Below are positions 14,155 through 58,941 of a stretch of 64,000 nucleotides of DNA, piece after piece; the stretch's first letter is position 1; every line of letters begins with the position of its first letter. Both the position numbers and the translations under genes were made by a program. Under the pieces are notes generated by a model. It had not been told where the DNA came from. It made no database searches and worked only from the letters and a program-made list of their open reading frames with translations. Source of the stretch: Aspidiotus rigidus (lineage: Eukaryota > Arthropoda > Insecta > Hemiptera > Diaspididae); NCBI GenBank assembly GCA_035079385.1, contig JAVHKY010000053.1, positions 2,046,001-2,110,000 on the forward strand. The letters are read 5' to 3'.

Positions 14155-17100
14155 ATGGGACGAAAAAAGAAGAGGCAGTCGAAGCCTTGGTGCTGGTATC
14201 CTTTCTCTTCATTACAGCGAGTGTGAACTTTTTACTTTTCCTTTGATTTGTTTGATACTTATTTCTCGAAGATTCAATGTGAGCATATTCTTATATTTTT
14301 CCTTAAGAATCCCCCCCAGGTATTGTAATCGTGAATTCGAAGACGAGAAGATTTTAATTCAGCATCAAAAAGCGAAGCATTTTAAATGCCACATTTGTCA
14401 TAAGAAACTGTACACGGGCCCAGGTTTATCGATTCATTGCATGCAGGTTTGCTAACAAATCCTAACGTGCTTGTTCTCTACACTAGAAAATAGATTAAAC
14501 TTATTTATTCATATTTTTGTTTGTACTAGGTACATAAAGAACCTATTGATAAAGTTCCTAATGCGCTTTCGAATCGATCAAATATCGAAATTGAAATTTA
14601 TGGAATGGAAGGAATACCCGCCGAAGATGTCAAAGAACATGAAAGACAAAAACAGGGAAATAATAAAGGTAATATTACTATAATTACAGTAATAATTGAT
14701 TGCGATGTACACGTTTGGGAAGAGTACTCAAATTTAGTCGAAACGCATGTTAACAAGACTAACTCTTATTATGAAGTGGTATTAATGACGTCAAAAGTGT
14801 GTATTAGTTCCGTGCCAACATTTTCTTTCACTTTCAATTCGCTCGCTTTTTCAAATTTTACCTGCACTCCTTTTTGATCCACCCTATTAACTTGATTTTT
14901 GTTTCTACACGACAGCAAATAATAATCGTAATTCAGATAGCGAAGATGAACAACAGCCTCCTCCGTCCAAAAAACCAAAACCCGAGCATCACCATCAAGT
15001 CAACCCAGCTATGGGTGGTATACCTCATGGAATGATGTCCCATATGCCTCCACAATACGGTCCTCCTATGATAGGTCCGATGGGCCCTGTCGGACCGTCG
15101 TATATGAATCCTGGGTAAGTCGGAATTGATGAATTACACCATGAATGCAAAACGGAAGTAATAACAACAAGTATGTTTTAGAATACCTCAAATGATGAAC
15201 CCTGCTGCAAATGCGATGAGTGCTGCTCCTTTAAACGCTCCAGGTACACCGACTTCTGTGAGTGTTCCCGCTCAAACGCATCCTAGTAAACCATTATTTC
15301 CTAGTGCTGCTGCGATTGTAAGTATTCACGAAATGTTTTTTTCTCTTTCTTTTGTATTTTGTTTTTACAACCATTGATTTTCCCAAAAACAAATACAATT
15401 TTGTCCTTGGAGATTCTAATTTGAAAGATAAATTAGTTGTATAGAAGTGTTAAGATTTGACTTGTAGAATTTCATGAATGAAAACTCCGGAGAATCTAAT
15501 TTCGAAAAGTAGACCTGCATTTTAAATTTCTAAATTAAAACTTGTACTTCCTGAGAGTTCGAATTGTGTTTCTAATTTATTGGTACCATTTATGGATGGC
15601 CAATTGATTTCTTGAATGTTTATTTTTCTGTTAGAATCCGAATGCAACCTCGACGTTAGTAGGTAGCGATTTCAAACCAATATGTACCACAGCTGCACCC
15701 ACTGCAACCAAGCCAACGTTCCCTGCTTATGGGTAAGTATAGTGCAGCATCAAATTGTTAACAACTAGTGGATTCGAACAATTAGATTTTATGTTTGTTT
15801 ATAGATCTTCGAATATGGACCAGAAAGTAGCGTTGATCAACACTGTCGGTTCATCGAGTAGAATTGTACACCCACCTGAAGATATTTCTTTGGTGATTAA
15901 ATAAATACTGAATACAAGAAAAATAATTATCAATTTCTAATCATTATCATGACGTTGTTTATAGGAAGAGCATCGCGCTAGACAAGCTAAGTACAAAGTC
16001 GAAGAAGCTGTTGCACCGATCGTCACGTCAACTGCGACTAGTGAAACAAATGGCAATGTTGTGACGTCTTCGCCTATCGCTCAGAACACTGCATCTACAG
16101 CTCTAACGTTTGCCCAGCAAATTGAGGTAACAAGAAATTTTCTGAAGTGTTCTTCAAAAATTATCGAAAGTATTGTTGACACGTCTCCTTAATTTGATTT
16201 TGATCGATTGACATACAAAGACGCGAAATAGAAAAACGGAAAGTGACAGATGAAAAGTTCTGTGCGAGGAGACACCAATAATAGATACTCTAAAGGAAAA
16301 TTTCCTTTTACAAGATTTTCCAGCAACACCAGATAAAATGTTCTTAATTATTATAAAACATTCGTAAGTTTTTTTTCTGTTTTTGTTTCAATTTTGTTCC
16401 CGTTATATCGTCCTCTAAGTACTTTTTTTTTTTTTTAACGCGTATAGTTTATTTTTTGCATATTAAGCCGAGCTTTATGGATCACGAGTAATATCATCGC
16501 TTCAATTTTTCTTTCATTCTGTTCTGTACCTTGTGTAGTGACATGGTGTTACACAATTTTTTTTTTGGTTTCATCTGGTATATTATGGTATTCTCTCGCG
16601 TATTACGAAAATATTATCGTTCAAAATATCATTACTCACTATACTAACGATTATTGTTTGTGTTTACAGATTGGTAAGGTACAACAGCAGCAGCAACAAC
16701 AACAACAGCTGCAACAACAAGCCGCCGCTGCACAAGCAGCCGTGAACGCAGCTGCAGCTGCTGCTGCTATATTGCCTCGTTTCCCTCAAATCGGCACGGT
16801 TCCGATGTCAGTTCCGATGTCTGTACCAATGTCCGTTGCTATGCCGCCCACCAGCGGCATTACGTTAATGACACCAATGCCTGGCACTCAGCTTTTACGA
16901 CCTGCCATGGCATTGCCACCCACAGCAATCATGACTCCTGCTGCTGCGGCTGCTGCCAATATGGGTATGCTAAGGCCTTCTCCTGTTGGCTTCCCAAGTA
17001 AGTTTGGAAGGATTTGAAATTTGAAATGATTGTGATGGTCGCCTTACATTTATTTGTATTTTTGTAGCTGGTTTTCTCGGTGCTACGCCGATGGTAAATC

Positions 17101-17171
17101 CATACGCTGCTGCCCAGATGACTTTTCCCGGTGGTCCGGTTTTGACACCAATGGTTCCCAGATTCAGATGA
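14155..17171 (+). CDS. BuGZ: BuGZ / ZNF207 orthologue, Bub3-binding spindle and spliceosome protein
   Basis: BuGZ binds and stabilises Bub3 at kinetochores and promotes spindle assembly. Ten exons join in frame: 14155-14195, 14320-14446, 14530-14668, 14916-15114, 15182-15317, 15635-15732, 15805-15892, 15965-16126, 16670-16997, 17068-17171 (473 residues; human ZNF207 is of similar length). The start [16 protein letters not shown] matches the family. Two C2H2 fingers follow at about residues 13-35 and 36-58 ([17 protein letters not shown]). A conserved helix [12 protein letters not shown] comes next, then a Pro/Met/Ala-rich low-complexity region. The GLEBS motif (about residues 225-285) includes [20 protein letters not shown] with the Glu pair needed for Bub3 binding. 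The C-terminus has polyQ and polyA runs and a triplicated VPMS. No defect is seen. Confidence 0.96.
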
Positions 17172-19700
17172 TCAGGTTTGTTGGAGGGGATTTGGTTGTT
17201 ATACCCCCCTCATAATATATGAACTAGTTATATGTATAAGATGACTAAATACCATAAATTAGAAAAATTATAAGAAGAAACTTCTTGAAAGGGGAAAAAG
17301 AGAAGAGTATTCTCATACCTAGCTAGAAGTGAAAAGCAATTCAACTGTAAATGAATTTATTGGAAAAATCTGGGTGTCGATATTTTTGATTATGAATTTG
17401 AGCGATGTTTCTTTTGTGCACATGTTACTTGGGATAATAAAAAGAAAAAAACATTGCGTTTGAATGTAAAAACCATTTTGTCTGGTTGATATTGTATATT
17501 AGAAAGAAGGAAGAGGATATTTCTTGATTTCATATCCTTGACAAAGAGAGAAAAGAAGAAAAAACGATTGGAATATCATTTTTTCTCTCTCTGTCTCGTG
17601 TGCTTTGAGAAACGTTATTCTGATTTCTCGAATTATGAAATAATAATGACATTTTCATACAATCTTCATTCTGCTGAACAAATCGGTTAACGGTTTATGT
17701 AAAGGTTGTTACTTTGTGTTTTCCAGCGTGAATCTTACTTGCGAGCGAACGATTAAGAGATCTATCTAAAAATGTTATGTGTCTCGTAAGTTTTTTCTTT
17801 TGGTAACCTCCTTCGTTGATTGCTCGTTTCGTATTTCGCTGTAGTTTTTGGAATTTTTTATTTTGGTTCACGATTTATCTTGACATTTTTCTTTAATATT
17901 CAGTTTTCAGTTTCTTTGTTTATTCATTCGGTTTATTTTGATATTGAGATGGTAAAAGTGCTTGAGAGATTGGTCAATGGAAGTTGAACATTGGCTTTTG
18001 AAATTTTATTTTGTGTATTGATCTTGTTGGTCTGAGAGCGAGGTAGTTTGAATTTATATTTTTGCCACTTAGTAATATTTCAAATTAATTCAAGATAAAT
18101 TTGAAAGCTTTTTAGATTTTTTTTATACGAATCTGTCTTCCTTGGAAGTACTTCGATTTTTTTTTTATCTGAACTTTTTCAATCCACAAGTGATTCGTTT
18201 GCACTATTTTCACGTAATAATTGGCAAGTGAGGAAGCCTGATGTGTTGTCTTCGGTTTATAAGTCGGTTTTTGTAAATTTATGATTAAAAGTCTCATTAT
18301 TTTCATTATTATTTTGTACATAATAGGATTGTTTTCAATTGTCTTACGTCGATATCTAGCATTATCTAGAAAGTTGAAGACGTATAAGCTGTTTTCGAAC
18401 ATCGTGTGATTTTTCTCTTTAAGCTGTGCCAAAATTGTTTTTCAAATCGGGTTTTTCATTATTCATAGGCTATTTTTTACGATGTACCGGGAATATTTTA
18501 GCTTTTGTTTTTTGGTTCGTCGGAAGTTTTCTCGTTTTGAAGTCTTCATCTCCTTTTTTCAACACCGTTTTCTCTTGTTCAACTATGTACCGCATGTATT
18601 TCGTGATCGAAAATCAATACGGTAATTATTTAGTGTTGTTTCATTTTACAAGTCTTCAATAAATTTGGTCCCTCAAATATACATCAGTAAATGACCTGAA
18701 TCTTATGAAGACATTCAATTTTTTCTGCCATCGAATTATGTACGGTATGATTTCTTCTTATGAAGACATTCAATTTTTTCTGCCATCGAATTATGTACGG
18801 TATGATTTCTGTCAACAGATTTATGGCTTAAAGAAAATCCATTCTTTTATTTTCTCAAATAGTTCAGAAAGCATAACTGTTTAGTTTCTCATTTTCTGTT
18901 TGTTTCTTTTATTTATTCATTCATTTTTCTGTGCTTTTTTTGTTCATTCTGCGCACATTCAACGAAGAATGAAAGTTTTGCTTCACCAACTTCACCGATT
19001 ATGAGTTTTCAAAAGTTTTGTCGCTTATGCTATCGTAAGGACTCGTGACTCATCTGAAAGGATAAGCAGAGCACCCTTCTGAAATCTGGACTCTTTACAA
19101 CGTGATTCTTCCAAATGAGAGAGCGTTCAATGAATGAGAAAATTTTGGCTGGGAAGGTGGAAAAAAAGGAGAGAAAAGAAACAAGCAAAATCCTGTGTTT
19201 GGGTAGATTTGCTGGAATTGACCCGGAAAAAATGAAGAAATCCTTAATTTGGCGTTTAGGAACACTAGTCTATAAATTGATACCCTAAAAATGTAGAGGC
19301 ACTTCTCAGATAATCCATTATTTACCTACTTTGCTTGTAAGAGGCGGAAAAATTATCAAAACTCTTTGTTTGTGCCCCAGTTTATTGTAACAAAGCTTCT
19401 CTTATCATTTGTTCATTTCTTCGTGTTTGCGAGTTTTTTTATTTGAATTTGAGTTCATTTTTTAATTTTTCTTTGTCATGATTACTAACGTTAAACGACA
19501 CGAACGAAATTGGGGGTATAAAAATCTAAATGAACTTTTTATTCTATCATTTATCCGAGATCTATTGTAAGAATCGGTAATTTTAGAAAGAATTGTAGAT
19601 TGTTTATTTATTAATGATCACGTTATTACTATTTTATTATTAAAATTATTTATAAAATCATCTCTATTATTAATAATGTTGAATAAAAAAAGAAGATGAA
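17172..19700 (+). other. BuGZ 3' UTR and downstream region
   Basis: No coding exon is seen. Candidate AATAAA signals occur near 17436, 18658 and 19681. CAG/GTTTGT just after the stop and TTTTCCAG near 17725 could allow a 3'-UTR intron. Confidence 0.4.
18701..18810. repeat. Perfect 55-bp tandem duplication
   Basis: The unit beginning TCTTATGAAGACATTCAATT at 18701 is repeated without change at 18756. Identity of the copies implies a recent duplication or an assembly artefact. Confidence 0.95.
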
Positions 19701-20017
19701 AAAAATGAATATGCGTTTTATATTTTTATTCTCCATCTCAGTTCAGGGTCTATTTCCTTCTATAGCGTTAGTTTTAGTAATTATTTGCTCTTACTTCGAT
19801 ATTAATTGTATTATGTTTTGCAGGCCAGTAATGTAGCAGCGAAAATATTATGAGTTAGGACAGGAGTTATCTCTTCTGCTAAATGTTCTCGGTTGAATCG
19901 GTTAGAAGTAAGAGATTTTAAGAAAATAAAAAATTTGAGTGATGGCAGCAAAGGTATCGTACTCCGCTTTTTACCTTTCAATCACCGGGTATTCGTAAGG
20001 TTTTGTTGTTTACGCAG

Positions 20018-20278
20018 TCACAGTAAGGCTGTTGGACGGAGTGAGTCCCTTGTCCGAGAACTGCGGCTCAATAAATGTAGCCGATTCGGGCAGGCGAAAT
20101 ATCACAGCTAAACTGTTGGACGAAAGTCCCTTGCTGAGAATTTTTTCAATATAATGAGCTCGGCAGGTGATGCGCAGATTAGGTATATTGTACTGTACTG
20201 GCGCGTTATCACAGCGTTGGTCGCTGTTGGACTCGACCGGGAGTCCCTTGTGTCGTCATCCGTTTTCGGCACAGGCGA
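20018..20278 (+). ncRNA. Three tandem copies of a three-hairpin RNA module, candidate structured ncRNA
   Basis: The copies are 20018-20097, 20102-20170 and 20209-20278. Each reads UC, hairpin a (ACAG...CUGU), U, hairpin b (GGAC...GUCC), CUU, hairpin c (6-bp stem), AGGYGA. Hairpin b has loop GGAGUGA in copy 1, a GAAA tetraloop in copy 2, and a longer GGACUC/GAGUCC stem in copy 3. Hairpin c changes sequence but keeps all six pairs: GUCCGA/UCGGGC, GCUGAG/CUCGGC, GUGUCG/CGGCAC. In copies 2 and 3 flanking AUC and GAU could close the module. There is no coding capacity. A plausible splice acceptor (TTTTGCAG, 19816-19823) lies about 200 bases upstream, so the modules may be in an exon of a long non-coding RNA. 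The strand is assumed from this acceptor. The family is not recognised. Confidence 0.5.
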
Positions 20279-23200
20279 TCGATATCACGATAAATTTTTT
20301 GTAAATTTATAGTCATTATCGCATATAATAAGTTAACAGTATAATGTTATTTGTTCTTTCTTAATGATTTTTATACTGTAGTTAGGTAATCTCCTTGTCT
20401 ACGTCTGTGGTTTCTGTGATTTTCTGGAAAGTGTCTTGTGTCGGAATTACTGAACGTTAGTAAGTCTCGCTCTTAAAGTTACCATTTTCCAGCACCCGCG
20501 GTGCTCGTTGAGAATATCGTACTTAGCTAGGTATTTTTGGATTCTTTCAATTTATCATAATATTTATTTACACTGCCAAAATTACGTATTGCATTTCTGT
20601 CGCTGTGTAGATGGTGTGGGGTCGCGTAAATCCACTAATGTTGTGTTTTTCACGAGTTATAACGTAGCATGTCTTTATAATTATTATACATAGTATCTCC
20701 TTTGAAAATGTGGTGCGTGCGCTTGGAATGATATTATGTATAATACGTGTATGCCCGTTTCATGCTTTCTTCTTCCTTCGTAAGCTGTTTCATTGAAATC
20801 GAACGAAAAATAACGCGTATTAATCAGAAGCACGTCCATTTTCTTAATATTTATTTTGAAAAATCAAGAAAGTTCACAAATGACATTTCTTATGTTTTGA
20901 AGATTTTGTACGCGATATGACATGTTCGTGCTCTGCTGGTTATCCAGTTCCATTGCACGATCTCGACAGCCTCTCAAACTGTTCACAGAAAACAATAGAC
21001 GTGTACTGTAAGTGTCCACAATTTTTCTAGTTCTACTATGTAACATTTAAAGATGCCTGCGAACCAACTAGAACGTTTTTCATTCGAACATTCCTCACCT
21101 ATGAAAGAGGTTCAGTTAGAAACTGTTTACGATCGAACATCGATGATTTCCACTGAATTCTTTGTGCACGGATCGAGTACTGTACGTATCATCTTGCAAA
21201 TATAAATTCGTGTGAGACGAAGTATAGTTTGACCGGTGTAGCGCTTCAAAAGCCTGAATTGAACGATAATTATTTTTGGTAAATTTTCAACACATATGTC
21301 AAATTTTGTTTGAACTTGATTCGCATATTGAAGGACAAAATTGATGAAGAGAAAATCGGCCTGAATTCTGCTTGCAATCGGCTAAAAATGTTGTGAATTT
21401 TTTTCCTCGAGTTGTGCCCTTGAAATGAAGTAGTCGAGATCAGATAAATTTTAGTGGTCGATTGGAAATACCAGGTTTGTTGGCCAAAATAATTTAAAAA
21501 TATATCCGTATGATCATGCTAAGCTTGATAGAGTTAGCCGACGCTCTTCCATTCTGGATGATGTGAGCTTGATTTTTAAGCAGAAACTGTCGATTATTCT
21601 GGATAGGAAGTTTGTATCATTTTTCTGCTGCAGTCAATTTGGGTCCAAATTGTACGCTTCATCTTTTTGTGTGTAAATTGAATGTAATTATTCGAGTAGC
21701 CATCATCAGCGAAGATCTGTTCAACTCGGCATTTTTTCTTATTGTCCAAAAAAATTGTAAGTACAAAGGGCTTGCAAATTGTGTACTTCGTGGTACTGTA
21801 CGAGTAAAAGTAATCTGATATTACTTTTCCTTTATTATATTTGTTGTTTCACTACAGCTGACAGATGGAAATCTAACTAGATGCTCTTTGCCCTCGGAAG
21901 TCTCATGTCATATTACTGCTACCGTTGTTCTTCAGAATTATAGGGTGGTAATTGCCCAGGTATCTCTGCGCAGTATTCTGTCACGTTGCCCTTTGTAATC
22001 GGTATTCTGACTTTATTAAATGTTTGGTATTTGCACTAGAATATTTTCTAATCATTTTCAGCTTGCGGCATACGTAAGTTTTATCCATCGAATTTTCCAT
22101 ATTGGTCGACTTGATTTGTGTTGTTTACGACGTAAATAATCAAATTGAAATCGTTGAAAGAAGGCACTTATCTGATATATCATAAGGTTCTAAATACTAA
22201 TAAAGGATGAATAATTTTCTTTATGCGTACAGAAGAAGAGATACAATCGCTGTTGTGGAATAACGATTATTTTGCATCCAATCTCGTCTGTTATCTTGAT
22301 AAAATCTTTGTGTACATTATTTTATCCTACTGATACAAAATAAAGTTGTGAATCTATGCAGTTTCTTTTTCTTTCTATGTACCTATTTCCCGAGTCGGCC
22401 TGGGTTACAATGTTTTCTGCAAAATTATCTGTGATCCCTGTTGATGAAAACCTAATGATTCTTCCTTGATATCGTTGAATATTTTGAAATATTTTGTTGC
22501 CCACACAATTGCAGATCTTTCTTTGTAAATGCGTGAATAATTCTCTTAGTACGCAGTGTGGTACCTTCCAATCTCTAGACAAAAAATGTGATATCAACGA
22601 CAAATAGACCTACACCAGTATTTAAATTACCCTCATCACGCTTCCAGTAAGTAAGATTTTGTTGTATTTTACAACAGATATTCTTGGCTGCAAAACCATA
22701 TAATTATAAGTACTTTTTACAGCAGAAACAGTAAGCAAACACTTTGAAGTTATACCAATACTTTTCTTACAATGATTGTATAACTTCAAGTGTTTTGAAG
22801 AAATTACATTAGTCTGCCAATCAATCTAGCTTTTGAAAAATTGCTTGCCCAAAATCGACTGGAATCTCTTGTAACTGTTTCAAGATTAAGCATTTTAATG
22901 GAGTGGAAAAGGGCATAAGTGTTTGAATAATGAATATTCATGAATAAAATCTGTTACCCGTGTCTTATAGCAGCTGGCTGGGCATCTGCAAATTGAAACA
23001 GTATCTGCCGTGAGCAGTAAGGCTTCATGTCTGATCTAATTGGTGATAGATTGATCAATGGATATTTTGAAGATGATCATTCTTATTTTGTCTAAATGAA
23101 ATAATGTCTTCAATAAGAGGATCTGGTTGAGCTTTTAACTCTTCACTATGCATCTAAAAATGTCTTGTTTCTTAAACTATACCGTCAAAGTTTTCATAAG

Positions 23201-30802: not shown

Positions 30803-33800
30803 TTAGGTTTCGAACGAGTATAAACCCGCTTTCCGTCCTGTACCCTCCGAGACTTTTGGCGCTGGCAGAACGTCAATAACATTTTCTTTAGTATAAAAAA
30901 TTCTATCTTCTTTTTCAGGCCATCTCCACATTTTTTTCCCTTGTATCTGAACTTTGGTTAACGCGCTGACCTCGACGTCGTCGTCGCTGTCATGGCTGAT
31001 TACCAACCCAGGATATTGGGTTGCATTGTACGACACCAGCACCCAGCTGCCATCCGGTATATCTTTCAAAGATGGGACAGCCGGTTTCTTTTTCTTCAAT
31101 GAAACTTTCTTCTTTTCATCAGGAATCAGTGATGAGAGAGACCGTTTCTTTTTTTTCAACAAAACTTTCTTCTTTTCACCGTCATCTTCTTTCTGTATGC
31201 CTAACGAAGATCGTTTTTCAATTCTTCTCGCGAGCTTCTCCTCACGGCCTTCTTCTTTCTTCTTGCGGTCTTCTTCTTTCTTCTTGCGGCCTTCTTCTTT
31301 CTTCTTGCGGTCTTCTTCTTTCTTCTTGCGGTCTTCTTCTTTCTTTTTAGCGAGCTCCTCTTTTTCCTTCACCTTTGCTTCTTCCATCGATCTCCAGGTG
31401 GAGCTGGTTATCACAGGAATTCTATTCATTGCAGCTCTTTTCTGTCGACCAGTTTTCTTTATAAAATCAGCTCGGGATAAAGATTTTAAAATGCCATCAA
31501 CAGTTGAAACATTGACCTGTAAAAATATGAGACCTGGTCGGAGTACAGGAAGCAGAATGTAAGGAATTCATAATACCTTGTTCCACCAGCACTAATCATT
31601 TTCACTTCAAAATGTAATCATTTAGGCTAACATATTCATTTTTTTTTCTTCTCAACTCACATCAGAATCAGGATTTCCTGTAGATTTCTCGGGTGAGGAG
31701 TGATCAGTTGTACTTGTTGCAATCGTCTCCACAGTGGACACAAAATTATCCGGAATCTGAAAAATAAATTCATATAGGATTATGTCTCAAATTATTTCCT
31801 CACAGAACACAAAAGTCAGGTGATCTTACATTCTCATATTCTTTGGGTTCCGTATCAATATCAACATTTTCGGAAGATTTTTCGGGTGTACTTGCTGCCA
31901 TTGGTTCAATAGTAGAGTCAAAATCATTGGAAATCTGAAAGATGATTCATATCTTAAACTGTTACCTCACAACACGCACAAAAATAAAGTATTTTCAAGC
32001 GATCTTACATTTTTATTTTCTTCCAAACCAATATCAACATTTTTGGAAGATTTTTTGCCTGAACTTGCTTCAATAAGTTCAACAATTGAGCTCCCATTCT
32101 TCTTTGAACTTGTATCAATTTCCAAAATTTGGACAGATTTTTCGGTTTCTCCATCTTGAGCAATGACAGAGTCTAAATTATCTATAGCCTAAAAAAGAAT
32201 TTGTGTTTTTTTTTTGTAACATTTGTGGTGTTTCACAATAGACTTATTTTTAATTCTGAGCTTACATTTTCACTGTTCGATTCGAGTCCGTCTTTATCAA
32301 AATTTTCTTTTCCGCACATTTCAATTAGGTCGACATCAGTCACATTCACTGGTATTTCAATTTCTCGATCCGAAACCTAGAAATTAAATAAAATGCACAT
32401 TCAAGTAGGTACCCATAAGCAAAAAGATACAGAACTGTCTACTGACTTCTCATCTTTTATGGATAGCCAAGGTAATTTACTCACTGTTGGGTCCGTCAAT
32501 CCCGTCAAAATTTCACCGTAATTCCTCCACAATAATTCTTGCGGAATATCCTCTGGATCAACAAGTGTAATATTTGAAACATCTTCAGATACTGGTACCT
32601 AAAAAAAATTTTACTCATTACAGTTTCAGCGCAAAAAAGCTAAAATTAAGGTAGCCTGTATAATAACTTACGTTAGATACATTTGCTTCGTTAGAAACGT
32701 TTGCTCTGTTAGATTTGTTCGCTTCGTTGTGAACTGCATCGTCCAATTCGAGAGTAAGATATGACTGGTTATCTTGGGTAAGACTGCGCCATACTCGAAA
32801 CAATTCTGCGTATTCTTGGTTCCCCTCCCAGGATTGATTTGTCCTCATGAAGTCCTTCAATATATTGCTGTCTATTTTTGATTCAAATAGATCAAGGACA
32901 ATATGCGATCTTGGTAGTGGGACAGATTCAGGTTTTGGAGCTGAAGATTTCAACACACATTTCGAATAATCGACGTTATTAGGCTCCCACGGAGATAAAC
33001 CGCATTTCCGAAATCCATTGATCATGCTCTTAGGTAAACTATTTTTTTCAAAAATAAGATCCAAAATTCTGGGAATCTCATATTTGAAAATGTTGCGCTT
33101 TTCTTTGAATTCGAAGAGATTTCTCTCTTTCTTCCACAATGCTTTGAGAGGCTTGAAGACAGCCACATCCAGTGGCTGACAGATGTGAGTAGCATTTGGA
33201 AAAAGACAAATGAAAATGACGTTGTTGTCAACCGCGAGAGTGCTAACTTGATAAGTGATGTGAGATCGATGACCGTCGAAGAACACAATGATCTTGTCAT
33301 CGCCGTGCTTTTCTTTTTTGTAGGGTATGAACACGTTGGCGAAATATTCGTAAAATACCTCCCCGTTCATCCAACCTGTTTCTGAAGTGCCAATGCACCA
33401 GTTTGGAGGTAAGGACGACCCATAAACAGCAGGCAAACGTACATATTTATAAACGACTAGTGAAGGTGCCAGATCGCCACTCGCAGACACGCACAGAGAA
33501 ATCGTAGTGCTGTCTTTATCATTGTTATTGTTGATATCGTAGACTGCAGAGCCTCGTTCAGCTAGGACCACTTTACCGTTCGTGTTCATGAAGAACGCAG
33601 ATTCGTCTAAATTGTACATACGATTGGGATAAATTAAGACATCAAAATCGTCATCATCCTTGAGGATCTTTGATACTTTATCAAACCACGCGCGAATTGA
33701 TGATTCTGTGACTGACGCTCTTGCTGAGCTGAGATATTCTGAACGTTTCTGCACAACTTTTGGGTGCCTCCTTAAAAATGATCGAAACCATTTTTCACCC

Positions 33801-34472
33801 GGCATTCCATTCTTGAACGGCAAATTTTCTTTATCATAACATTCTTCCACTAACTTTTTTACGCTATACAGTAAATCATTCTTTGTAATCGGAAAACCAC
33901 GTCTGGCTTGTTCTAAAATCCACGTTACGAGCTTCTCTTCGTTATCACTTCCTGTGAAATAGGTTCAGATAGAGTCTCATCATTAGAGTAGACAGTATGG
34001 TAAGTATCTAAGTGCTAACAATATAGTAGATTTTTACCAAGAATTGCCTCCGGGCCACATTTTCCCTTCTTCTCCGGTCGAATTTTCAAAAGTTTGCAGC
34101 TGAGTGTGCTTCGCGGAATGTTGAAGTTTCTTGACGCCTGACTAACTGAATATAAACCTCCTTTTATTCCATCGAGACATTTCTGGAGTTTACGAGGTGA
34201 ATAATCGCCCTTCTGCGGCTTACGTGAACTCTGAAAATAATGTATTTATCAATGTGAGTGCTTAAGAGAAGGCAATTTGTTCATAAAATGATAGCATGTT
34301 GCATAACGGGATACGAAATTCCACAACAACTAGACCATTTTGCAACGACCGTTGCAATCTGGAAATATGGATATTCTTTAAACCACTTCGAAACCCTTTA
34401 ATATTTTATTTAGAAATTTACATAATTAATTCGAATGATTTTTTTTCTTGATATTTGAAGTGTACTTACCAT
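30803..34472 (-). CDS. pogo-like transposase, spliced, 931 codons
   Basis: Nine exons join in frame: 34472-34470 (ATG exactly at the donor), 34230-34038, 33951-32672, 32598-32485, 32376-32266, 32188-32009, 31934-31830, 31756-31661, 31516-30803. The N-terminus has a pipsqueak-type helix-turn-helix (YSPRKLQKCLDGI, then ASRNFNIPRSTLSCKL, residues about 10-50). A CENP-B-like helix region with GEKWFRSFLRRHP follows. The DDE_1 catalytic core has Asp in NLDESAF (about 181), FFDGHRSH (about 291) and QPLDVAVF (about 327), with 35 residues between the last two. Four short exons then encode an acidic Ser/Glu-rich linker. The last exon has KKKEEDR-type heptads, KKKK patches and a compact domain starting DGSWVLVSYNATQYPGLVIS. 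All exon phases agree and no internal stop is seen. Confidence 0.85.
31246..31350 (-). repeat. 21-bp in-frame tandem repeats coding for KKKEEDR heptads
   Basis: About five 21-base units in the last transposase exon encode EEDRKKK or EEGRKKK heptads, a highly charged helix. Confidence 0.85.
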
Positions 34473-36372: not shown

Positions 36373-37277
36373 GTGAATAAAATTTTTTTTGCTGAAGAGC
36401 TTTTTTTCAGGATTTTTTTCTGTAGGTTGTTAGTAGACAGGTTCCTGATACTAGTACACGCCTTTAGCTTAATTCATTCCAAGAAGGGGCGGGGGTAGAG
36501 GGTATTCAAAAATATTGATCCATTACGTAGGAATTTCCATCGTAATGGCAACCATGGGTGTAAGAATTTCCATCGTAGTGGCAACCAAAATGTAAGAATT
36601 TCTTTGGTAATGGCTAGACTGGATGGCTGATTTTCAAGTATCTAGATATCATAACGTTGATATTGCAAGGTGAGTTGACTAACAGCATAATTATGTACGT
36701 TTGTTACACTTTAATGAGTGCCTAAATTCCCTTAATTTCAGGTGAATATTGTCATTTGTAGAATACAAAATAATGGTCCATTCTGTTTTTTGGCTGACAT
36801 GAAGCTAGCAACACAAGAGGAATATCACATGTAAGGATTTAAACTATACTCGTTTTACTATTTAGTAATAAGAAAATATAATTGAACAATATAATTGAAC
36901 TCACAAAGGAGAAACAAAAAACATGACTAAAAAAAGTAACTTCATCGGCTGCTAAAAACATAAAGAACACAAAATGTGAACAAGTAATATTCTCTAGGAT
37001 TTCTTCATACTCCTGAATCCAAATGTTGTAAATAGATGAACCATGAATTTAACTTACAAAATAAACTTACAAAAAAGAAAAAAAAAAAAAAGAACTAAAA
37101 CAGGTAACTTCTGTCATTTTGAGGTACATGAAGGGGTGGGGGCACGAATCTATGTGGCTATACAGGTTGGGGGGATACTATATTATCTATATTCACAAAA
37201 GAAAGAAGGAAAATGGACGCATTTTAGTCCTTAAAAAGTGGAGTTACAAGAATATGCCCTAATTTTGAGAATCACCC
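36342..37277. mobile_element. 936-bp inverted-repeat element within the U repeat
   Basis: The left end GGGTGATTCTCAAAATTAGG is matched in inverse at the right end (CCTAATTTTGAGAATCACCC), about 27 bp in all. ATTA flanks both sides (36338-36341, 37278-37281). Removing it restores the uninterrupted U sequence seen at 35821. No transposase is seen inside. A stray end of the same type (GAATCACCC) lies at about 54885. Confidence 0.75.
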
Positions 37278-39480
37278 ATTAGGGATTGCCGCTATAATTT
37301 TGTCTATAGATTTACCTTTTTTGAGGTAACCTTGTTCAAGTATAAAATTACAAAATATACTCACATCTTCAATACCATAATCTGTAGCATTTAATATATT
37401 TCTCAAATCTCTAATGTGATCGTATTGAATTTTCTTCAAATGATGAATTTCTACTTCACTTGATATACTACTTAATAATTTACTTATGTTTGACCTGATA
37501 GTGGATATTCTGAATGCGTCACGAAGGTTAGGAAGAAAACCAGATTCCTTCCAATAATTCATATTTTCAATTTCTCCACGACGCCGCTTCTTCTTGTTTA
37601 AATAATTCATCACCAACCACACGTTGAGCATGTCATTCCTATACCCGTTATAATAATCCTTGGTTATCTCAAATTCAGAAAGGAGATTAACTTCGTGCTT
37701 TTCTAGAACATAAGTAGTCCAGTATCTTCTGGTGTGAATTCTTCAGTGTCGTCACGATTGTGTGATCAGATATTTTTTACGCAATATCTCTGTGAATCTA
37801 TTTTGTATGTTCACAAAATTTTAAACTGTAGTATAAGAAAAAATAAAAGGGGATTATTTGGTAGCGTCAAATAACTCATTCCACACCTGTTAGGCCTGTC
37901 AGAATTTCTTACATTTTTCTTCTTTCCATTTGAAAAAGTAGTTACCTATATATTTTCTGGCATTATTACAGTCGTGTGATCGACATTCCTTACGCGATAT
38001 CTTTATGAACCTATTTCATGTTCACAAAAGGATTGATGGATCGATAACAATAACACATGATTTAATTTTGCACTATCAGAAAGAAAAGTTCTTTTGTAGT
38101 TGTCGAAAAGGTACAGTTTGCCTGATTGCTGATTTGGATATACATTTTGAATTGACTACAGACAATCTGCAAGGCACGAACCTCTTCCAGCCTGCTACGG
38201 GCTGCTTGTTTTCTCATTTCTTCACTTTTTTTAGAAACTTTCTCAATATGCATTTTTATGGCAGGATCGTAGATGCCCAAGTATTTTATAGACTTGATTA
38301 TTTGAAGCAAATATTGGCTTTCACAAACGTGATGTCCATACGAAGTGTCTGAAACTTCGGTGGTTTCTGGGAGGACTTCTTCAGGGGGCACATATAAACC
38401 TCAGGCAATATTTCACCTGCATGTTGAAAGTTTTTCAATTCCAACTCTTCATCAATGGTTTGGCTGTGAGGATTGAGGTGTGACCCGTAGTGTTCATATT
38501 AACAATGCAAGAATATGACAGTGTTACCTCTTAGACAAAAATGTAATTTGACATAGACTCTTCCTCTTCATTGTCCAATGTATCGCAATCTACTGAATCA
38601 ATTTCCATTTCATTAATCATCTGTACTATTAATATTAATCCCTCCAATGTTGTCTTCACAAAGAACTAATCAATTATCAGAGCTGATTATCATCAACACC
38701 AGAGCTCATAAGTTTAAGATTGAGTACAGTCTAGTTTTACTGTACAGCAAAAACTAAAACCGGCAAGGTGGGACCTTTTACCATGGAATGCCACATTTAT
38801 AGAATGGACTTCAAATTGTATGTACCAGAATTTATCATCGCTATTTCCGGATTTCATTAAAATACCTGCAGAACTGTCATAATTTACTATACATTCTCGT
38901 CAAATTTGATTTGAAACTTTCTTTTCATTTTTCTCAATGAGAATAGGTTTTTTGCTAACAGGATGGAAGTAAAGAGGATGTGATTGTTGGTTCCACATTT
39001 GATACAGAGAGGTTTTGTTTGTTTCTGATTTGTTCTGTTGGTTTGTTTTGTCATTGTATTTATAGACATTGCGGCTTCTTTCCTCTTGTAAGCCGTCCTG
39101 AACACGTCTCTAATCACAGGCATCTCACGGTACGCGATATTAATATGTAGACTATACCCTCCCCAACTATTCTCGATTTACACTAAGCTTCTCGCCTAAT
39201 CTGTTGGAGCGCTATAGCCCCATAGGTGATAACACGTTATCACTTCGAAGTGACCGTCTTCACTCCATGGTGACCGCCTTCACGTCCATTGACGGTACAG
39301 AAAGTTTATAAGATTTAAAAAATATTGTATCTTGTGCACATCTTCTTGGTTAATAAACTAAAATTAAATTAGTTCAATTTTTATTCTGTAGGTACAGTAA
39401 AAATAATTCCAAAATACAGTATTACATAAAAATTACTTCACTTCATCTATTGAAGATTGCGGTGTCTTATTATTTAGATC
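37278..39480 (-). repeat. U repeat, copy 1
   Basis: Nearly identical to 41540-43370 plus 44410-44840. It lacks the roughly 1-kb block (43370-44410) holding the Copia-type gag and a helix-turn-helix piece; the junction is at about 39088. Minus-strand frames are the uncharacterised protein RRYWTTYVLEKHEVNLLSEF...NYWKESGFLPNLRDAFRI (37278-37740), a helical frame SQYLLQIIKSIKYLGIYDPA (38060-38391), and a gag knuckle remnant CIKCGTNNH (about 38990). Confidence 0.7.
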
Positions 39481-41415: not shown

Positions 41416-41539
41416 TGCGGAAGGTCGTAATCGTTACCCAGGAACTTCATTCAAGGACGTCTCTGATTTATCAAAATTATATTTATTCAGTATTTCTGGT
41501 GACACATAAGTCTTGACATAGTTTGTCTATAAATTTATC

Positions 41540-44500
41540 TTTTTTGACTGTTTTGACTTTTTTGAGGTAACCTTGTTCAAGTATAAAATTAAAAAATATA
41601 CTCACATCTTCAATACCATAATCTGTAGTATTTAATATATTTCTCAAATCTCTAATGTGATTGTATTGAATTTTCTTCAAATGATGAATTTCTACCTCAC
41701 TTGATATACTACTTAATAATTTACTTATGTTTGACCTGATAGCGGATATTCTGAATGCGTCACGAAGGTTAGGAAGAAAACCAGATTCCTTCCAATAATT
41801 CATATTTTCAATTTCTCCACGACGCCGCTTCTTCTTGTTTAAATAATTCATCACCAACCACACGTTGAGCATGTCATTCCTATACCCGTTATAATAATCC
41901 TTGGTTATCTCAAATTCAGAAAGGAGATTAACTTCGTGCTTTTCTAGAACATAAGTAGTCCAGTATCTTCTGGTGTGAATTCTTCAGTGTCGTCACGATT
42001 GTGTGATCAGATATTTTTTACGCAATATCTCTGTGAATCTATTTTGTATGTTCACAAAATTTTAAACTGTAGTATAAGAAAAAATAAAAGGGGATTATTT
42101 GGTAGCGTCAAATAACTCATTCCACACCTGTTAGGCCTGTCAGAATTTCTTACATTTTTCTTCTTTCCATTTGAAAAAGTAGTTACCTATATATTTTCTG
42201 GCATTATTACAGTCGTGTGATCGACATTCCTTACGCGATATCTTTATGAACCTATTTCATGTTCACAGAAGGATTGATGGATCGATAACAATAACACATG
42301 ATTTAGTTTTGCACTATCAGAAAGAAAAGTTCTTTTGTAGTTGTCGAAAAGGTACAGTTTGCCTGATTGCTGATTTGGATATACATTTTGAATCAACTAC
42401 ACACAATCCGCAAGGCACGAACCTCTTCCAGCCTGCTACGGGCTTCTTGTTTTCTCATTTCTTCACTTTTTTTAGAAACTTTCTCAATATGCATTTTTAT
42501 GGCAGGATCGTAGATGCCCAAGTATTTTATAGACTTGATTATTTGAAGCAAATATTGGCTTTCACGAACGTGATGTCCACACAATGCGGCTGAAACTTCG
42601 GTGGTTTCTGGGAGGACTTCTACAGGGGGCACATATTCAGCTATTACATTGTGATTTTCAATAACCATCCCAGACCAAACCTCAGCCAATATTTCACCTG
42701 CATATTGAAAGTTTTTCAATTCCAACTCTTCATCAATGGCTTGGCTTTGAGAATTGAGGTGTAACCCGTAGTGTTCATATTAACAATGCAAGAATATAAC
42801 AGTGTTACCACTTAGACAAAAATGTAATTTGACATAGACTCTTCCTCTTCATTGTCCAATGTATCGCAATCTACTAAATCAATTTCCATTTCATTAATCA
42901 TCTGTACTATTAATATTAATCCCTCCAATGTTGTCTTCACAAAGAACTAATCAATTATCAGAGCTGATTATCATCAACACTAGAGCTCGTAAGTTGAAGA
43001 TTCAATACAGTCTAATTTTACTCTACAGCAAAAACTAAAACCGGCAAGGTGGTACCTTTTACCATGGAATGCCACATTTATAGAATGGACTTCAAATTGT
43101 ATGTACCAGAATTTATCATCGCTATTTCCGGATTTCATTAAAATACCTGCAGAACTGTCATAATTTACTATACATTCTCGTCAAATTTGATTTGAAACTT
43201 TCTTTTCAATTTTCTCAATGAGAATAGGTTTTTTGCTAACAGGATGAAAGTAAAGAGGATGTGGTTGTTGGTTTTACATTTGATACAAAGAGGTTTTGTG
43301 TGTTTCTGATTTGTTCTGTTGGTTTGTTTTGTCATTGTATTTATAGACATCGCGGCTTCTTTTCCTCTTGTCTTCTTTGTACTTCTTTCTGATTTTGTTC
43401 TTCCACCAACAGGTTTTCTTTTGTTTCCTCAATTGTCATTGGTTTTGTCAACTCTTTATTTATGATGATTGGACAATGGTAATGATCTTTGATGGCAAAG
43501 ATTAAGTTTTGTTTTTCCTCATTCATTGTTAATTCGGAGCACTTCCGTATTTTTTCAACAACTGCCGTGAATTGCGTCAAACTCTAGCGCTGTTTTTTTT
43601 TTTTTGGAGTCGAAGCACGTGTCACCAAACTGACATTGTTTTAGAAGGTATCTTCAATTGTCCAAAATAAAATAAGAAAGTTGGCCAAAAGAAGAAGAAA
43701 CAAAAAACAAAAATTTATTATCACATTAGAATTCCAGACTAGGCAGGTAACTAATGAATATTATTGTTATCGTCGCCGTCATAGAGGAATCCACCAGTCT
43801 CACCCTGGTTTATTCTCTTTGAATTCGGTTATTTTTTGAAGAGTGTTCAGGTAATCTCAAATCGCGCCTCCCTTAATGGGAATTTCCACTCTTGGCACTG
43901 AATAATTATTTGGACCAATCTTCTTCTTCCTCCTCTGATAAAATGGTTTGACCACCATAATATTTTTTACAAGGCTGATCACGCGATCTAGAGACATTTT
44001 CTTGGAGGGTTGAATACAGAATCGCAAATGTTCGTGACGCTTTACTTATCAACATCTTCTTATCTCAAACTGCAAAAATAGCATTCTGTAGAAATGTTTG
44101 GTTGTACTTACAATTGGTCGTTTCATTTGGCTTTTGTAGCATGGAACTATCTATAATCGACAAGCCAAATTATCATTACTAGGAAAATGATCTCGCAAAA
44201 ATTAGCTCAACATGAGATAGGGTATTTTTTGCCTACCTCGACGAAAATTTTTATGCGTGACCATTTTCACCCCACATGAACATTTACAACGATAGCTCAT
44301 CAATGAGCAATCGAAACAAAACGATCTGATGGCTAAACAGTTCTTTACAAGAAACTTGATCTCTCTCCTCTGAAGTTTAAAAAAAAATCAAAATGTACAA
44401 AATCCGGCATTCTGCGTAAGCCGTCCTGAACACATCTTTAATCACAGGCATTTCACGATCCGCGATAGGAATATGTAGACTATACCCTCCCCAACTATTC

Positions 44501-44850: not shown

Positions 44851-44910
44851 ATCGGTGACATTTTTCCGAAAAAATTTTTCCGACAGTACATGTTTCCGAA
44901 TTGAAATTTT

Positions 44911-45080
44911 TCCGACACTCACTTTTTCCGACAGACAAAATTCCGAAAACCTTTTTTTCCGACATCATTGTCCGACACTCACTTTTTCCGACAGACAAAA
45001 TTCCGAAAAACTTTTATTCCGACATCATTGTCCGACACTCACTTTTTCCGACAGACAAAATTCCGAAAAGCTTTCAAGTA
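44911..45080. repeat. 60-bp unit repeated three times in the left MULE arm
   Basis: TCCGACACTCACTTTTTCCG recurs at 44911, 44971 and 45031 with exact 60-base spacing. The opposite arm has one copy. Confidence 0.92.
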
Positions 45081-45112: not shown

Positions 45113-46638
45113 TTAAAGGGTAACATTATGCGATAATGTTCTCAAATACTGAATGACTGGCAAGTTCGGATAGTCTGCTGATATTGCTTCTAACCGCGTC
45201 TGCAGATCTCGCCACTTTTTCGAAGGGCCATCCTTCACTCTCTTCCCTAATGCCAGTTCGGCCACACAAACTTCAGAGTAACCTTGCTCCTTCTTAAATT
45301 CTGATATAGTGGTATATATGTCGGGATGATGTCGTCCCACGATCGATTGAAAGCGGTTGTGCCAGGCCTCCGAGATATTATTTGTCCGATGCGATTTGGC
45401 TACCGCAGTATCGTATTGATTCCATAGGGCTGGCTCAAACGTAGGCCTGACAGCTCTCCGATTTCCTCGCCTTGTTACTCCACGGATGTAATTTCTGTCG
45501 AAGTAATCGTACACGGGAAGAAGTGCTGCTGGGCACTCTCTTCGAAGCTCTCTGTACGCACTAACTACATCTGCCGGCGGAACAAAAGCGAGTGCCATTA
45601 ACATATGCGTGTGAAGCTTTAGTGATCGGTCATTTTCGTCATTATATGCCACCTGCAAGCCTTCTCGTTGCACCCTCCTATATATTGATTGACAGAGGTG
45701 GAAGAAACATCCGGATACTGTGACAGCAGGGAAGAGAGTTTTGCATGCGTTTATGATTCCAAGTTCAAAGTTGCACATGATCTTCAACGGTATGCAGGGG
45801 TCGATACGGAACTGGTTGACAGCGTTCGAAATTACTTCTAGTGCTTCAATGTACATTGATTTCTTCTTGCTCGAAAGTAGGGCATACACTAGAGGTATTG
45901 CCACTGCCTCTCCAGAGTCGCCAGTGCGTTTACGAAGGCCCATTACGGTAAATATTTGAGTGAAGATGGAAGGCGCGGTTTTAAAGGTGCCGTCAACGAA
46001 CCAGACGGTACTGGTGCACAGTATTTCAATATTTCGCCTCGTGGCAAATACAAGTACTCTTCGTGGTGGCTGCTCTTCGTCGTCGTCGTCCGACAGCCCT
46101 TCGTCCTCCTCGTCTTAGGTATCGCGGTCGTCATGCGCATCAGTGAGGGAGTCGTACATGAGGAACTGTTCATCGAGCAACGTCTTCTGGTACTCATCCG
46201 GCAGCTCGCCTAGATCGGCCAATGATTTCGGGTTTGGTACGCTGTTCGTACTTCGTACACGCCTGATGGTGCGTAGCAGCGCTGTTTGTTCAGGCATTTG
46301 GCTGAGTACAGAACCCGAGGTACCCTGCAGTTCACACCTAAGAAGCTGTGCAGGCCGCAACTCCGGTTGTGTAGCAGCCTTGCGCTTTATTCCTTGAGTT
46401 ATTTTCTCAGCGGCTACCTCTTCGCGATCAGGTGGATGTGAGTGAGTGGAATCCGTCGGTCCTTTGAGTACCTCAATATGTCCGTCCGAAGCATTTACAA
46501 TTGTGACGGCTCGCGCGGTACACTCCTTCCTCTTCGTTCTTCTGCAATCCCAGTATGTTTTCTCTTTTCGCTCACGGGACTTGTAATTTATATGTATCCA
46601 TCGAGGTGTAGCTTGTTGGCCATGATTTCAGGAGGCAT
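45113..46638 (-). pseudogene. MULE transposase with FLYWCH zinc finger, one frameshift and one stop
   Basis: The start is MPPEIMANKLHLDGYI (ATG at 46638), then after a 1-base loss near 46587 a FLYWCH finger: KTYWDCRRTKRKECTARAV with His pair HSHPPD. Next comes LLRTIRRVRSTNSVPNPKSL. A single in-frame TAA at 46115-46117 is followed, in the same frame, by an acidic run and VWFVDGTFKTAPSIFTQIFT, the first catalytic Asp (DGTF). Then GEAVAIPLVYALLSSK, PLKIMCNFELGIINACKTLF (second acidic site), CFFHLCQSIYRRVQREGL (CxxH) and RTNNISEAWHNRFQ. These are the MULE domain motifs in order. Only two lesions in about 500 codons indicate a young copy. Confidence 0.85.
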
Positions 46639-47123
46639 CTTCACTTGATACTGAAGGAATGCCCGTTCATGCACACGGGGTTTAACTGTTTTTCCGGAAT
46701 GCCAGGCAAAAGTGTCCGAAATTGGTTTTTTTAAATCGTTGTCGGAAAATTTTTTTTCGGAAAAAATGTTGTCGGAAAACTTTCAATGTTAGCATTCGGA
46801 ATAAAAGTTTTCGGAATTTTGTCTGTCGGAAAAAGTGAGTGTCGGAAAAATTTCAATTCGGAAACATGTGCTGTCGGAAAAATTTTTTCGGAAAAATGTC
46901 CGGCAACCTACTGAAAATGTGAAAAGTGGCGTCAATTTTTACGTTGATTGAGTAGTCTTAGTTATCATCGTTGACTGAGTGGTCTTAGGTATAGAAGCAG
47001 GAGATGGCTTGCATTCATTACTCCAGAAGTTATGTGTACTTGACTGAGTGGTCTCAATTATCATTGACTGAGGAGTGTGAGGTGTAGAAGCAGGAAATAA
47101 CCCACATTGGTCGAACCAATTTC

Positions 47124-57833: not shown

Positions 57834-58869
57834 TCATTTTTTCCAACGTTTTTCCCATTGTTTGAATGAGTTTTGAAACATACTTTCCGAAATCCCTCTC
57901 AATTCACCCTGTACAGCATTTTGTATTTCCGGAATCGACTCAAAAACACGACCCTTCAAATTTTTTTTAATAGTGGGGTATAAAAAAAAATCATTTAAGG
58001 CAAGGTCCGGGCTGTACGGGGGATGAGGGACCAATTCGATCTTCTTTTCGTCAAGGAACTTCTTTACCAAAATTGCTGTGTGCACTGGCGCGTTGTCATG
58101 GTGAAGTTTAAAGGCGCCTCCCTGAAATTCCGGCCTCTTCCTTGGGATATGGACCCGTACGAGTTTCTTCAGAACACTAGTGTAATATGCTGCGGTCACC
58201 GTTTTACCCTGCTCAACAAAATGGCAATAAATCATCCCACGGCAATCGAAGAATGTGATGGCCATTGTCTTCTTCGCTGATTTTTGGGCCTTTGCTTTCA
58301 CCGGCGGAGCGGATCCTTTTTTCCGCCATTCCGTGCTCTGCTGTTTCATTTCTGGGTCAAAGGCATACATCCAACTCTCATCGACCGTAACGACATTATA
58401 AAACCAATTTTCGTCTTCCTCAAGATGCGAGAGCATTTCTTTGCAAATGCGAACTCGATTCTCCTTCATTTTGTCCGTAAGCAAGCAATCGGGGAATCCA
58501 CCGCGCACTAATGCGTGAATAGCCGAGATCGTGTTTCAAAATTCGTTGAGCGGACGACAGCGAAATATGTAGTGCTCTACTTAAAGCACGAAGTGTAATT
58601 CGTGCATCATCGGCAATCAAGGTGGCAGCAGTGTTCACTAACGTCTCCGTTCGCGCGCTTCGGGGAACACCTGGCCCGCCTTTCAAATCCCCACTCGTTC
58701 GACCACTCTTGTACGCGTTCAACCAACGATAAACAGCTGCACGTGATAGACAATCATTGCCGTATGTCTCCTTTAATTGTCTATAAATTTCGGCCGCTTC
58801 AACATCGCGTTTTCGAAGAAAATTAATGACGTAACGTTGTTCCCGTTTAATTTCCAAAAAATCACTCAT
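57834..58869 (-). pseudogene. mariner transposase with one frameshift
   Basis: The start is MSDFLEIKREQRYVINFLRK, with paired helix-turn-helix motifs (CLSRAAVYRWLNAYKSGRTS, ITLRALSRALHISLSSAQRI) and WIPRLL. A single base change in length near 58485 shifts frame; it resumes at TDKMKENRVRICKEML. The DD34D triad is intact: TVDESWMYAF, LHHDNAPVHTA and YSPDLALNDFF. The C-terminus ends WEKRWKK. This frameshift is the only lesion seen. Confidence 0.93.
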
Positions 58870-58941
58870 TGTTTTGTACAGACCTAAAACGAACACGTTT
58901 CACAAAACAACTTGACAGGAACGAGTCGTGTTAGCAACAAC

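What the first reader, a model, noticed from the sequence alone, without database searches (positions are those of the whole stretch)
20018..20278. Three tandem copies of an unrecognised three-hairpin RNA module with compensatory changes
The copies share UC-(ACAG..CUGU)-U-(GGAC..GUCC)-CUU-(6-bp stem)-AGGYGA. The third stem differs in sequence in each copy yet keeps six pairs, and the second stem keeps its pairing with different loops, including a GAAA tetraloop. Primary sequence outside the conserved joints has diverged. This pattern indicates selection on RNA structure. The joints CUU and AGGYGA are invariant except for one pyrimidine, as expected for a binding or catalytic site. It sits in a 4.5-kb stretch with no protein gene, downstream of BuGZ. 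It may be an exon of a long non-coding RNA with a repeated protein-binding module, by loose analogy with roX RNAs.
Basis: partly seen in the sequence, partly recalled or inferred. Interest (0 to 1): 0.88.

Follow-up and report, generated by a model that had tools for sequence, protein, structure and literature searches.

The report
Tandem three-hairpin RNA modules, scale insect
Downstream of the BuGZ gene in what is likely a scale-insect genome, three neighbouring stretches each have the base-pairing for the same three-hairpin RNA, with one hairpin rewritten in every copy yet still paired; it likely marks an unrecognised RNA element whose repeated modules are predicted to dock a protein.

Summary
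Three copies lie at 20018-20097, 20102-20170 and 20209-20278. The "joints" CUU and AGG are the paired foot (CUUG/CAGG) of a third stem of 9 contiguous pairs in each copy. Its outer five pairs are rewritten in each copy (arms share 0-2 of 5 letters), yet 15 of 15 pairs hold, while arms swapped between copies give 1-3 of 5. U-G wobbles fit the + strand (9 of 9 pairs; 7 of 9 on minus).

BLAST finds the array once in its 441-Mb genome. It has no Rfam match, no protein match and no U1-type promoter element upstream. The host is likely a scale insect (BuGZ 67% identical to Planococcus citri).

Most likely: a + strand non-coding transcript with a three-fold docking site for an RNA-binding protein. 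Transcription, binding and conservation are untested; no related insect genome could be searched. Against: folding energies are modest; with flanking sequence, P1 of copies 1 and 2 is predicted to pair elsewhere and the closing stem has probability 0.0. Kinship with roX is not supported.

The parts
20018..20097 (+). Module copy 1 (c1): UC, P1 20020-20032, U 20033, P2 20034-20048, P3 20049-20094, C 20095, GA
   Evidence: coordinates; cut alone it folds so at minimum free energy, -27.7 kcal/mol; with 6-nt flanks P1 changes partner
20102..20170 (+). Module copy 2 (c2): P1 20104-20116, U 20117, P2 20118-20129 with GAAA loop, P3 20130-20167, U 20168, GA
   Evidence: coordinates; folds so, -19.6 kcal/mol; with 6-nt flanks a 4-pair closing stem also forms, a four-way junction, but its two inner pairs have probability 0.0 in the three longer contexts
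20209..20278 (+). Module copy 3 (c3): P1 20211-20227 (two extra pairs), U 20228, P2 20229-20246 (two extra pairs), P3 20247-20275, C 20276, GA
   Evidence: coordinates; folds so, -29.6 kcal/mol; with 6-nt flanks P1 is replaced, in longer contexts P1 has probability 0.92-0.95
20049..20094 (+). Stem 3 of c1 (CUUGUCCGA / UCGGGCAGG); counterparts 20130-20167 (c2) and 20247-20275 (c3)
   Evidence: 5 of 9 pairs changed on both sides, 100% of cells paired; swap test
20282..20288 (+). AUAUCAC box after c3, like the UAUCAC that opens c2 and c3 (c1 opens AGUCAC)
   Evidence: read from the sequence
20290..20310 (+). 8-bp AU hairpin AUAAAUUU-UUUGU-AAAUUUAU after the array
   Evidence: sequence; present in the fold of 19824-20330
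19824..20459 (+). Possible exon: AG at 19822-19823 before it, GTAAGT at 20460 after it
   Evidence: splice sites read by eye (inference). GC: first rise in 19820-19879 (0.433), a dip to 0.267, then above 0.41 from 19940 to 20299; further rises at 20390-20540 and 20570-20659
14155..17171 (+). BuGZ/ZNF207 coding exons, stop codon 17169-17171, 2.85 kb upstream of c1 on the same strand
   Evidence: exons joined by eye; best match Planococcus citri ZNF207, 67% over 100%

Best explanation
Three tandem copies at 20018-20278 have the base pairing of one three-hairpin RNA module, likely part of a + strand non-coding transcript in which the repeated module would dock an RNA-binding protein several times over. 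Shown: the copies, stem 3's rewritten but paired arms, the wobble-pair strand bias, a single BLAST locus in the genome. Inferred: that it is transcribed, that the conserved helix feet and junction (UC-P1-U-P2-P3-Y-GA) rather than the divergent loops are recognised, and that three copies raise avidity. Because the P1 arms are identical in the copies, P1 can also pair between copies 1 and 2, so the array may exist in an open form (separate modules) and a locked form (copy 1-copy 2 swapped), which protein binding could choose between.
For: Stem 3: the five distal columns change on both sides and pair in 3 of 3 copies; own arms 5/5, swapped arms 1-3/5. + strand 9/9 pairs, minus strand 7/9 in each copy; array z -3.46 on +, -1.02 on minus. 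Conserved letters sit in helices and junction while the loops cannot be aligned, which suggests an old duplication kept under constraint. GC 0.506 in 0.31-0.347 surroundings. Single locus: BLAST of 507 nt, 1 match, itself. The model scores 67.8, 56.2 and 45.4 bits here against at most 24.7 in 321 viral and prokaryote loci picked by core patterns. No Rfam match. Not coding: no Pfam at E<=0.1, none of 47 protein candidates at E<=10.
Against: No RNA data. No homologue in any other species, because no related genome was searchable. Only three sequences, so covariation rests on one helix. Single-copy energy z-scores are ordinary. In longer contexts P1 of c1 and c2 has probability 0.02-0.07 and the closing pairs P0 0.0 in all three copies, so neither P1 in two copies nor the four-way junction is predicted there. 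In the genome the core pattern's 3 matches are fewer than the 6 of the reversed control pattern, so its rarity alone proves nothing. No protein partner is suggested by any search.
Confidence: 0.45

Rival explanations
1. The array is a cis-acting element in a long 3' UTR isoform of BuGZ mRNA, controlling its stability, localisation or translation, and not part of a separate RNA.
For: Same strand as BuGZ, 2.85 kb after its stop codon; no Pfam family above cut-off in the frames scanned between and after; AATAAA signals downstream at 22199, 22339 and 22943.
Against: AATAAA signals at 17436, 18658, 19682 and 19925 lie before the array and one at 20070 inside c1's P3 loop, so a long 3' UTR would have to read past them; an AG at 19823 with rising GC after it could be an exon start.
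Confidence: 0.25
2. A relic: an old structured element (for example a tail of a lost mobile element) whose copies duplicated locally and are now drifting.
For: Transposon remnants elsewhere in the window; no function shown; stems 1 and the closing stem are poorly predicted in context.
Against: Drift would break stem 3, yet 15 of 15 rewritten pairs hold; no other module found in the genome among the loci scored.
Confidence: 0.15
3. DNA-level element: palindromic protein-binding sites (ACAG-N-CTGT, GGAC-N-GTCC) in an enhancer or silencer; pairing is incidental.
For: P1 and P2 are perfect DNA palindromes and do not vary; the other strand near GGGACT resembles kappaB-type sites (recalled, not tested).
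Against: Stem 3 is kept by pairing, not by sequence, and uses U-G wobbles that would be mismatches in a DNA cruciform.
Confidence: 0.08
4. A small self-cleaving ribozyme array.
For: Compact module with conserved core, in tandem; a Y before GA at the junction.
Against: Nearly all conserved letters are base-paired, only U and Y are not; no Rfam ribozyme reaches threshold.
Confidence: 0.04

Closest known systems
roX1/roX2 lncRNAs (Drosophila)
   Same: Tandem structured repeats in a non-coding RNA; [quoted passage not shown]
   Different: No roX-box consensus near the element (consensus recalled); three-hairpin modules instead of roXbox stem-loops; likely scale insect, not a fly; chromosome linkage and protein partners unknown.
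Tandem structured elements of viral 3' UTRs (e.g. flavivirus exoribonuclease-resistant RNAs; recalled)
   Same: Duplicated multi-helix modules in tandem.
   Different: The core sequences I recall are not seen; no viral gene was noticed beside it; no Rfam match.
snRNA-type genes (U1, U6, 7SK-like)
   Same: Compact structured RNA in an AT-rich setting.
   Different: The element shared by this genome's U1 genes is absent upstream of the array.

Membership tests
roX RNAs | roX box motif (GUUNUACG, recalled) in stem-loops | tested here: not met
   2 matches in 64 kb, at 6393 and 47458, against 5.26 expected; none near the array
roX RNAs | Binding by MLE/MSL proteins and association with the X | not testable with these tools
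   no RNA-protein or chromosome data
roX RNAs | Tandem structured repeats with alternative pairings | tested here: met
   three modules; predicted array fold pairs P1 arms of c1 with c2; prediction only
Any described RNA family (Rfam 15) | Score at or above a family's gathering cut-off | tested here: not met
   0 matches in 64 kb; at E<=10 two sub-threshold matches in 19700-20700
snRNA-type gene | Proximal sequence element shared with this genome's U1 genes | tested here: not met
   element typed from 5 of 6 U1 loci (L355 lacks it); 0 matches with up to 3 mismatches in the window, 0.23 expected by chance; best + strand score at 17.2-20.02 kb 0.6 against 28.2-31.5 for the five sites the matrix was made from
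Protein-coding tandem repeat | Open frame with homologues or a domain | tested here: not met
   frame 0 has a TGA at 19851 and a TAA at 20109; no Pfam at E<=0.1; no protein at E<=10 among 47 candidates
Dispersed repeat or transposon part | More copies in the genome | tested here: not met
   BLAST of 19824-20330: 1 match, itself (the tool skips very common words); 3 of 3 core-pattern matches are these copies. BLAST of the flanks did not complete
BuGZ 3' UTR element | Inclusion in BuGZ mRNA | not testable with these tools
   no RNA-seq; same strand, 2.85 kb past the stop codon

The most novel reading that the evidence does not exclude
A scale-insect architectural lncRNA: three modules form a switchable, multivalent protein platform, in a lineage known (recalled) for silencing or eliminating the paternal genome, so that this could be a roX- or Xist-like chromosome-acting RNA that arose independently.
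Probability: 0.04. Interest if true: 0.95.

Novelty: new variant of a known kind. Interest (0 to 1): 0.5.

Why it matters
Structured lncRNA modules kept by compensatory change seem rarely described in insects outside flies (my impression, recalled). If relatives keep the three stems, the three copies give a ready covariance model for tracing an RNA through scale insects, a group with unusual chromosome biology (recalled). A search for papers with mealybug and lncRNA gave 21, of which the 20 listed titles and abstract starts name no such RNA (listing only). If it proves to be a BuGZ 3' UTR element, it would still be a new cis-regulatory RNA module.

Tried and rejected
Coding repeat: frame 0 over 19854-20312 is open but for one TAA, and the GTTGGAC cores are spaced 84 and 111 nt, both multiples of 3; rejected because I saw no ATG in frame before the copies, a TGA stands at 19851 after the presumed splice site, and there is no Pfam or protein match.

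snRNA-type or Pol III type-3 gene: a T-run follows c3, but the promoter element of this genome's U1 genes is absent. The nine U6-like loci printed (of 15 found) shared no element that I could see, so U6 gave no yardstick.

More copies: none further in the window by model, also with filters off for 17-24.5 kb (next best 6.5 and 6.1 bits). Own genome: of 8 matches of TTGGACN{3,14}GTCCCTTG (reversed control 90), 5 are elsewhere; all 5 were scored and only the C56 one appears, 17.1 bits, E 0.0063, lacking P1 and most of P3. Of 32 matches of CACAGN{2,16}CTGTTGGAC (control 13), 29 are elsewhere; 27 were scored, none at E<=1, two had no locus. Of 12 matches (control 2), 11 are elsewhere; 8 were scored, none at E<=1, three had no locus. 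The pattern CTGTTGGACN{3,14}GTCC did not complete.

Viral and prokaryote collections: each stopped at 120 stretches (lower bounds), one search gave 81, one search gave 1. The model over the 321 loci gave 32 matches at E<=1, best 24.7 bits in L254, a prokaryote contig; these loci were picked for the core letters, so such scores are expected. L331: 10.9 bits. A script over 329 loci and the window listed 18 rows: 8 from the window or loci overlapping it, 10 from five other loci; of these L156, a viral contig, has the whole P1-U-P2-P3-N-GA layout without the CUUG/CAGG foot, a reminder that the layout alone can arise by chance; it did not reach E 1. That script missed c1 through a greedy match and can have missed others. 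These collections hold no insect genomes meant as such and say little.

Stability alone as evidence: rejected. In 650 windows of 80 nt over 17-23.5 kb on both strands (40 shuffles each), the array's best windows stand 18th and 19th by z.

Papers: search listings (0 papers); passages of PMC6536480, PMC4719309 and PMC6451107. No paper on this element was seen in those listings; one search found 47 papers holding one of four short letter strings, of which 20 were listed, none on this element by title.

Full report
What is there. The + strand of the window carries three copies of one module: c1 20018-20097, c2 20102-20170, c3 20209-20278. Each reads UC, stem 1 (ACAG..CUGU), U, stem 2 (GGAC..GUCC), stem 3, Y, GA. 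Stem 3 is CUUGnnnnn..nnnnnCAGG, 9 contiguous pairs in each copy. Cut exactly, each copy has these three hairpins as its minimum-energy structure, -27.7, -19.6 and -29.6 kcal/mol. A box AUAUCAC like the one opening c2 and c3 returns after c3 at 20282-20288, followed by an 8-bp AU hairpin at 20290-20310.

Is it more than chance. The sequence core occurs 3 times in the window against 0.03 expected. That shows duplication, not structure. Structure is shown by stem 3. Its outer five pairs have arms sharing 0-2 of 5 letters between copies, yet each copy pairs 5 of 5 with its own partner and 1-3 of 5 with another copy's. The five columns change on both sides. Drawing arms from local composition gave 15 of 15 pairs in 2 of 500,000 trials; shuffling interiors gave a product of 7e-7. 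With only three sequences, column shuffles cannot say more than 3-5 of 500. Among 120 chance viral loci with the same core and a free partner position, 3 reach 9 or more pairs. These tests follow a structure that had already been noticed. Stems 1 and 2 do not vary; in c3 each gains two further pairs by matched additions, which is mild support.

Strand. Each copy's stem 3 uses two U-G pairs; on the minus strand 7 of 9 pairs remain in each copy against 9 of 9 on +. The array folds with z -3.46 on + and -1.02 on minus. Both point to a + strand RNA, the strand of BuGZ.

Limits of the folding evidence. Single-copy z-scores are -1.68, -2.42 and -2.73, and the array's best 80-nt windows rank 18th and 19th of 650 between 17 and 23.5 kb, so energy does not single it out. 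With 6 nt of flank, c2 keeps the three hairpins and adds a closing stem; c1 changes P1; c3 keeps P2 and 7 pairs of P3. In the 281- and 501-nt contexts P2 has probability 0.91-0.99 and P3 0.80-0.98; in an 877-nt context 0.67-0.91 and 0.79-0.98. P1 is 0.92-0.95 in c3 but 0.02-0.07 in c1 and c2, whose identical arms pair between copies instead. The closing pairs P0 have probability 0.0 in each context, so a four-way junction is not predicted there. Whether the P1 swap is real is untested; it resembles the competing roXbox pairings described for roX2 (PMC4719309, passages).

Surroundings. BuGZ/ZNF207 ends at 17169-17171, 2.85 kb upstream. Its best database match is Planococcus citri, 67% over the whole query; the next by E-value is an unnamed protein at 49%, and the next named one with full coverage is Daktulosphaira at 47% (best 120 of 1492 listed). 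The host is therefore likely a scale insect. Ten open frames of 79-109 aa, nine between 18 and 23 kb and one at 25.1 kb, not every frame there, gave no Pfam family above its cut-off. GC is 0.506 in the module against 0.31 and 0.347 in flanks. It first rises in 19820-19879, after an AG at 19822-19823, dips, and stays above 0.41 from 19940 to 20299; there are further rises downstream. A GTAAGT begins at 20460. An exon 19824-20459 is plausible, by eye only.

How widespread. In the 441-Mb own genome the 507-nt stretch has one BLAST match, itself (the tool skips very common words). The core pattern has three matches, these copies; its reversed control has six, so the pattern's rarity alone is not evidence. 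Looser patterns found no further module among the loci scored: 5 of 5, 27 of 29 and 8 of 11. The best, on contig C56, has 17.1 bits and no P1, and is likely chance. No Rfam family matches. In 321 viral and prokaryote loci picked by core patterns the model reaches at most 24.7 bits against 45.4-67.8 here. No related insect genome was open to search, which is the main gap. BLAST of the two flanks did not complete.

What it most likely does. Conserved helix feet with free loops are what a protein recognising helix grooves or a junction shape would leave. Three copies suggest avidity. I therefore favour a multivalent docking array in a non-coding transcript, at 0.45; rivals are a BuGZ 3' UTR control element (0.25), a relic (0.15), a DNA-level element (0.08) and a ribozyme (0.04). 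Everything past the pairing is inference.

Known relatives. It shares with roX RNAs the design of tandem structured repeats, but no roX box is near (consensus recalled), so it is not filed there. It is not an snRNA-type gene by promoter, shows no sign of coding and is not seen as a dispersed repeat.

Noticed in passing
44858-45074 and 46739-46896: Arrays of short repeats, TTTTTCCGACA on one side and its complement TTGTCGGAAAAA on the other, flank an open frame with a MULE transposase domain (45113-46114, with 46115-46627 next to it): likely a Mutator-like element with repetitive inverted ends.
   Followed up: partly
18701-18810: A 55-bp unit duplicated head to tail with 100% identity in the stretch downstream of BuGZ, so a recent event or an assembly artefact.
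   Followed up: no
22720-22850: A hairpin-rich stretch with the lowest z-score of the folding scan, -4.07 on the minus strand, containing AAGTTATAC..GTATAACTT arms; could be a small inverted-repeat element or a hairpin precursor.
   Followed up: no
37272-38352 and 41483-42593: Two near-identical open-frame pairs about 4.2 kb apart, a local duplication, probably of a mobile element.
   Followed up: no
32618-33964: Tigger/pogo-type transposase frame; the named relatives are mostly from insects.
   Followed up: partly
57834-58899: Mariner-like transposase in two overlapping frames, so probably broken.
   Followed up: no
19854-20312: Frame 0 is open but for one TAA, and the GTTGGAC cores are spaced by multiples of 3; no coding evidence found.
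   Followed up: yes
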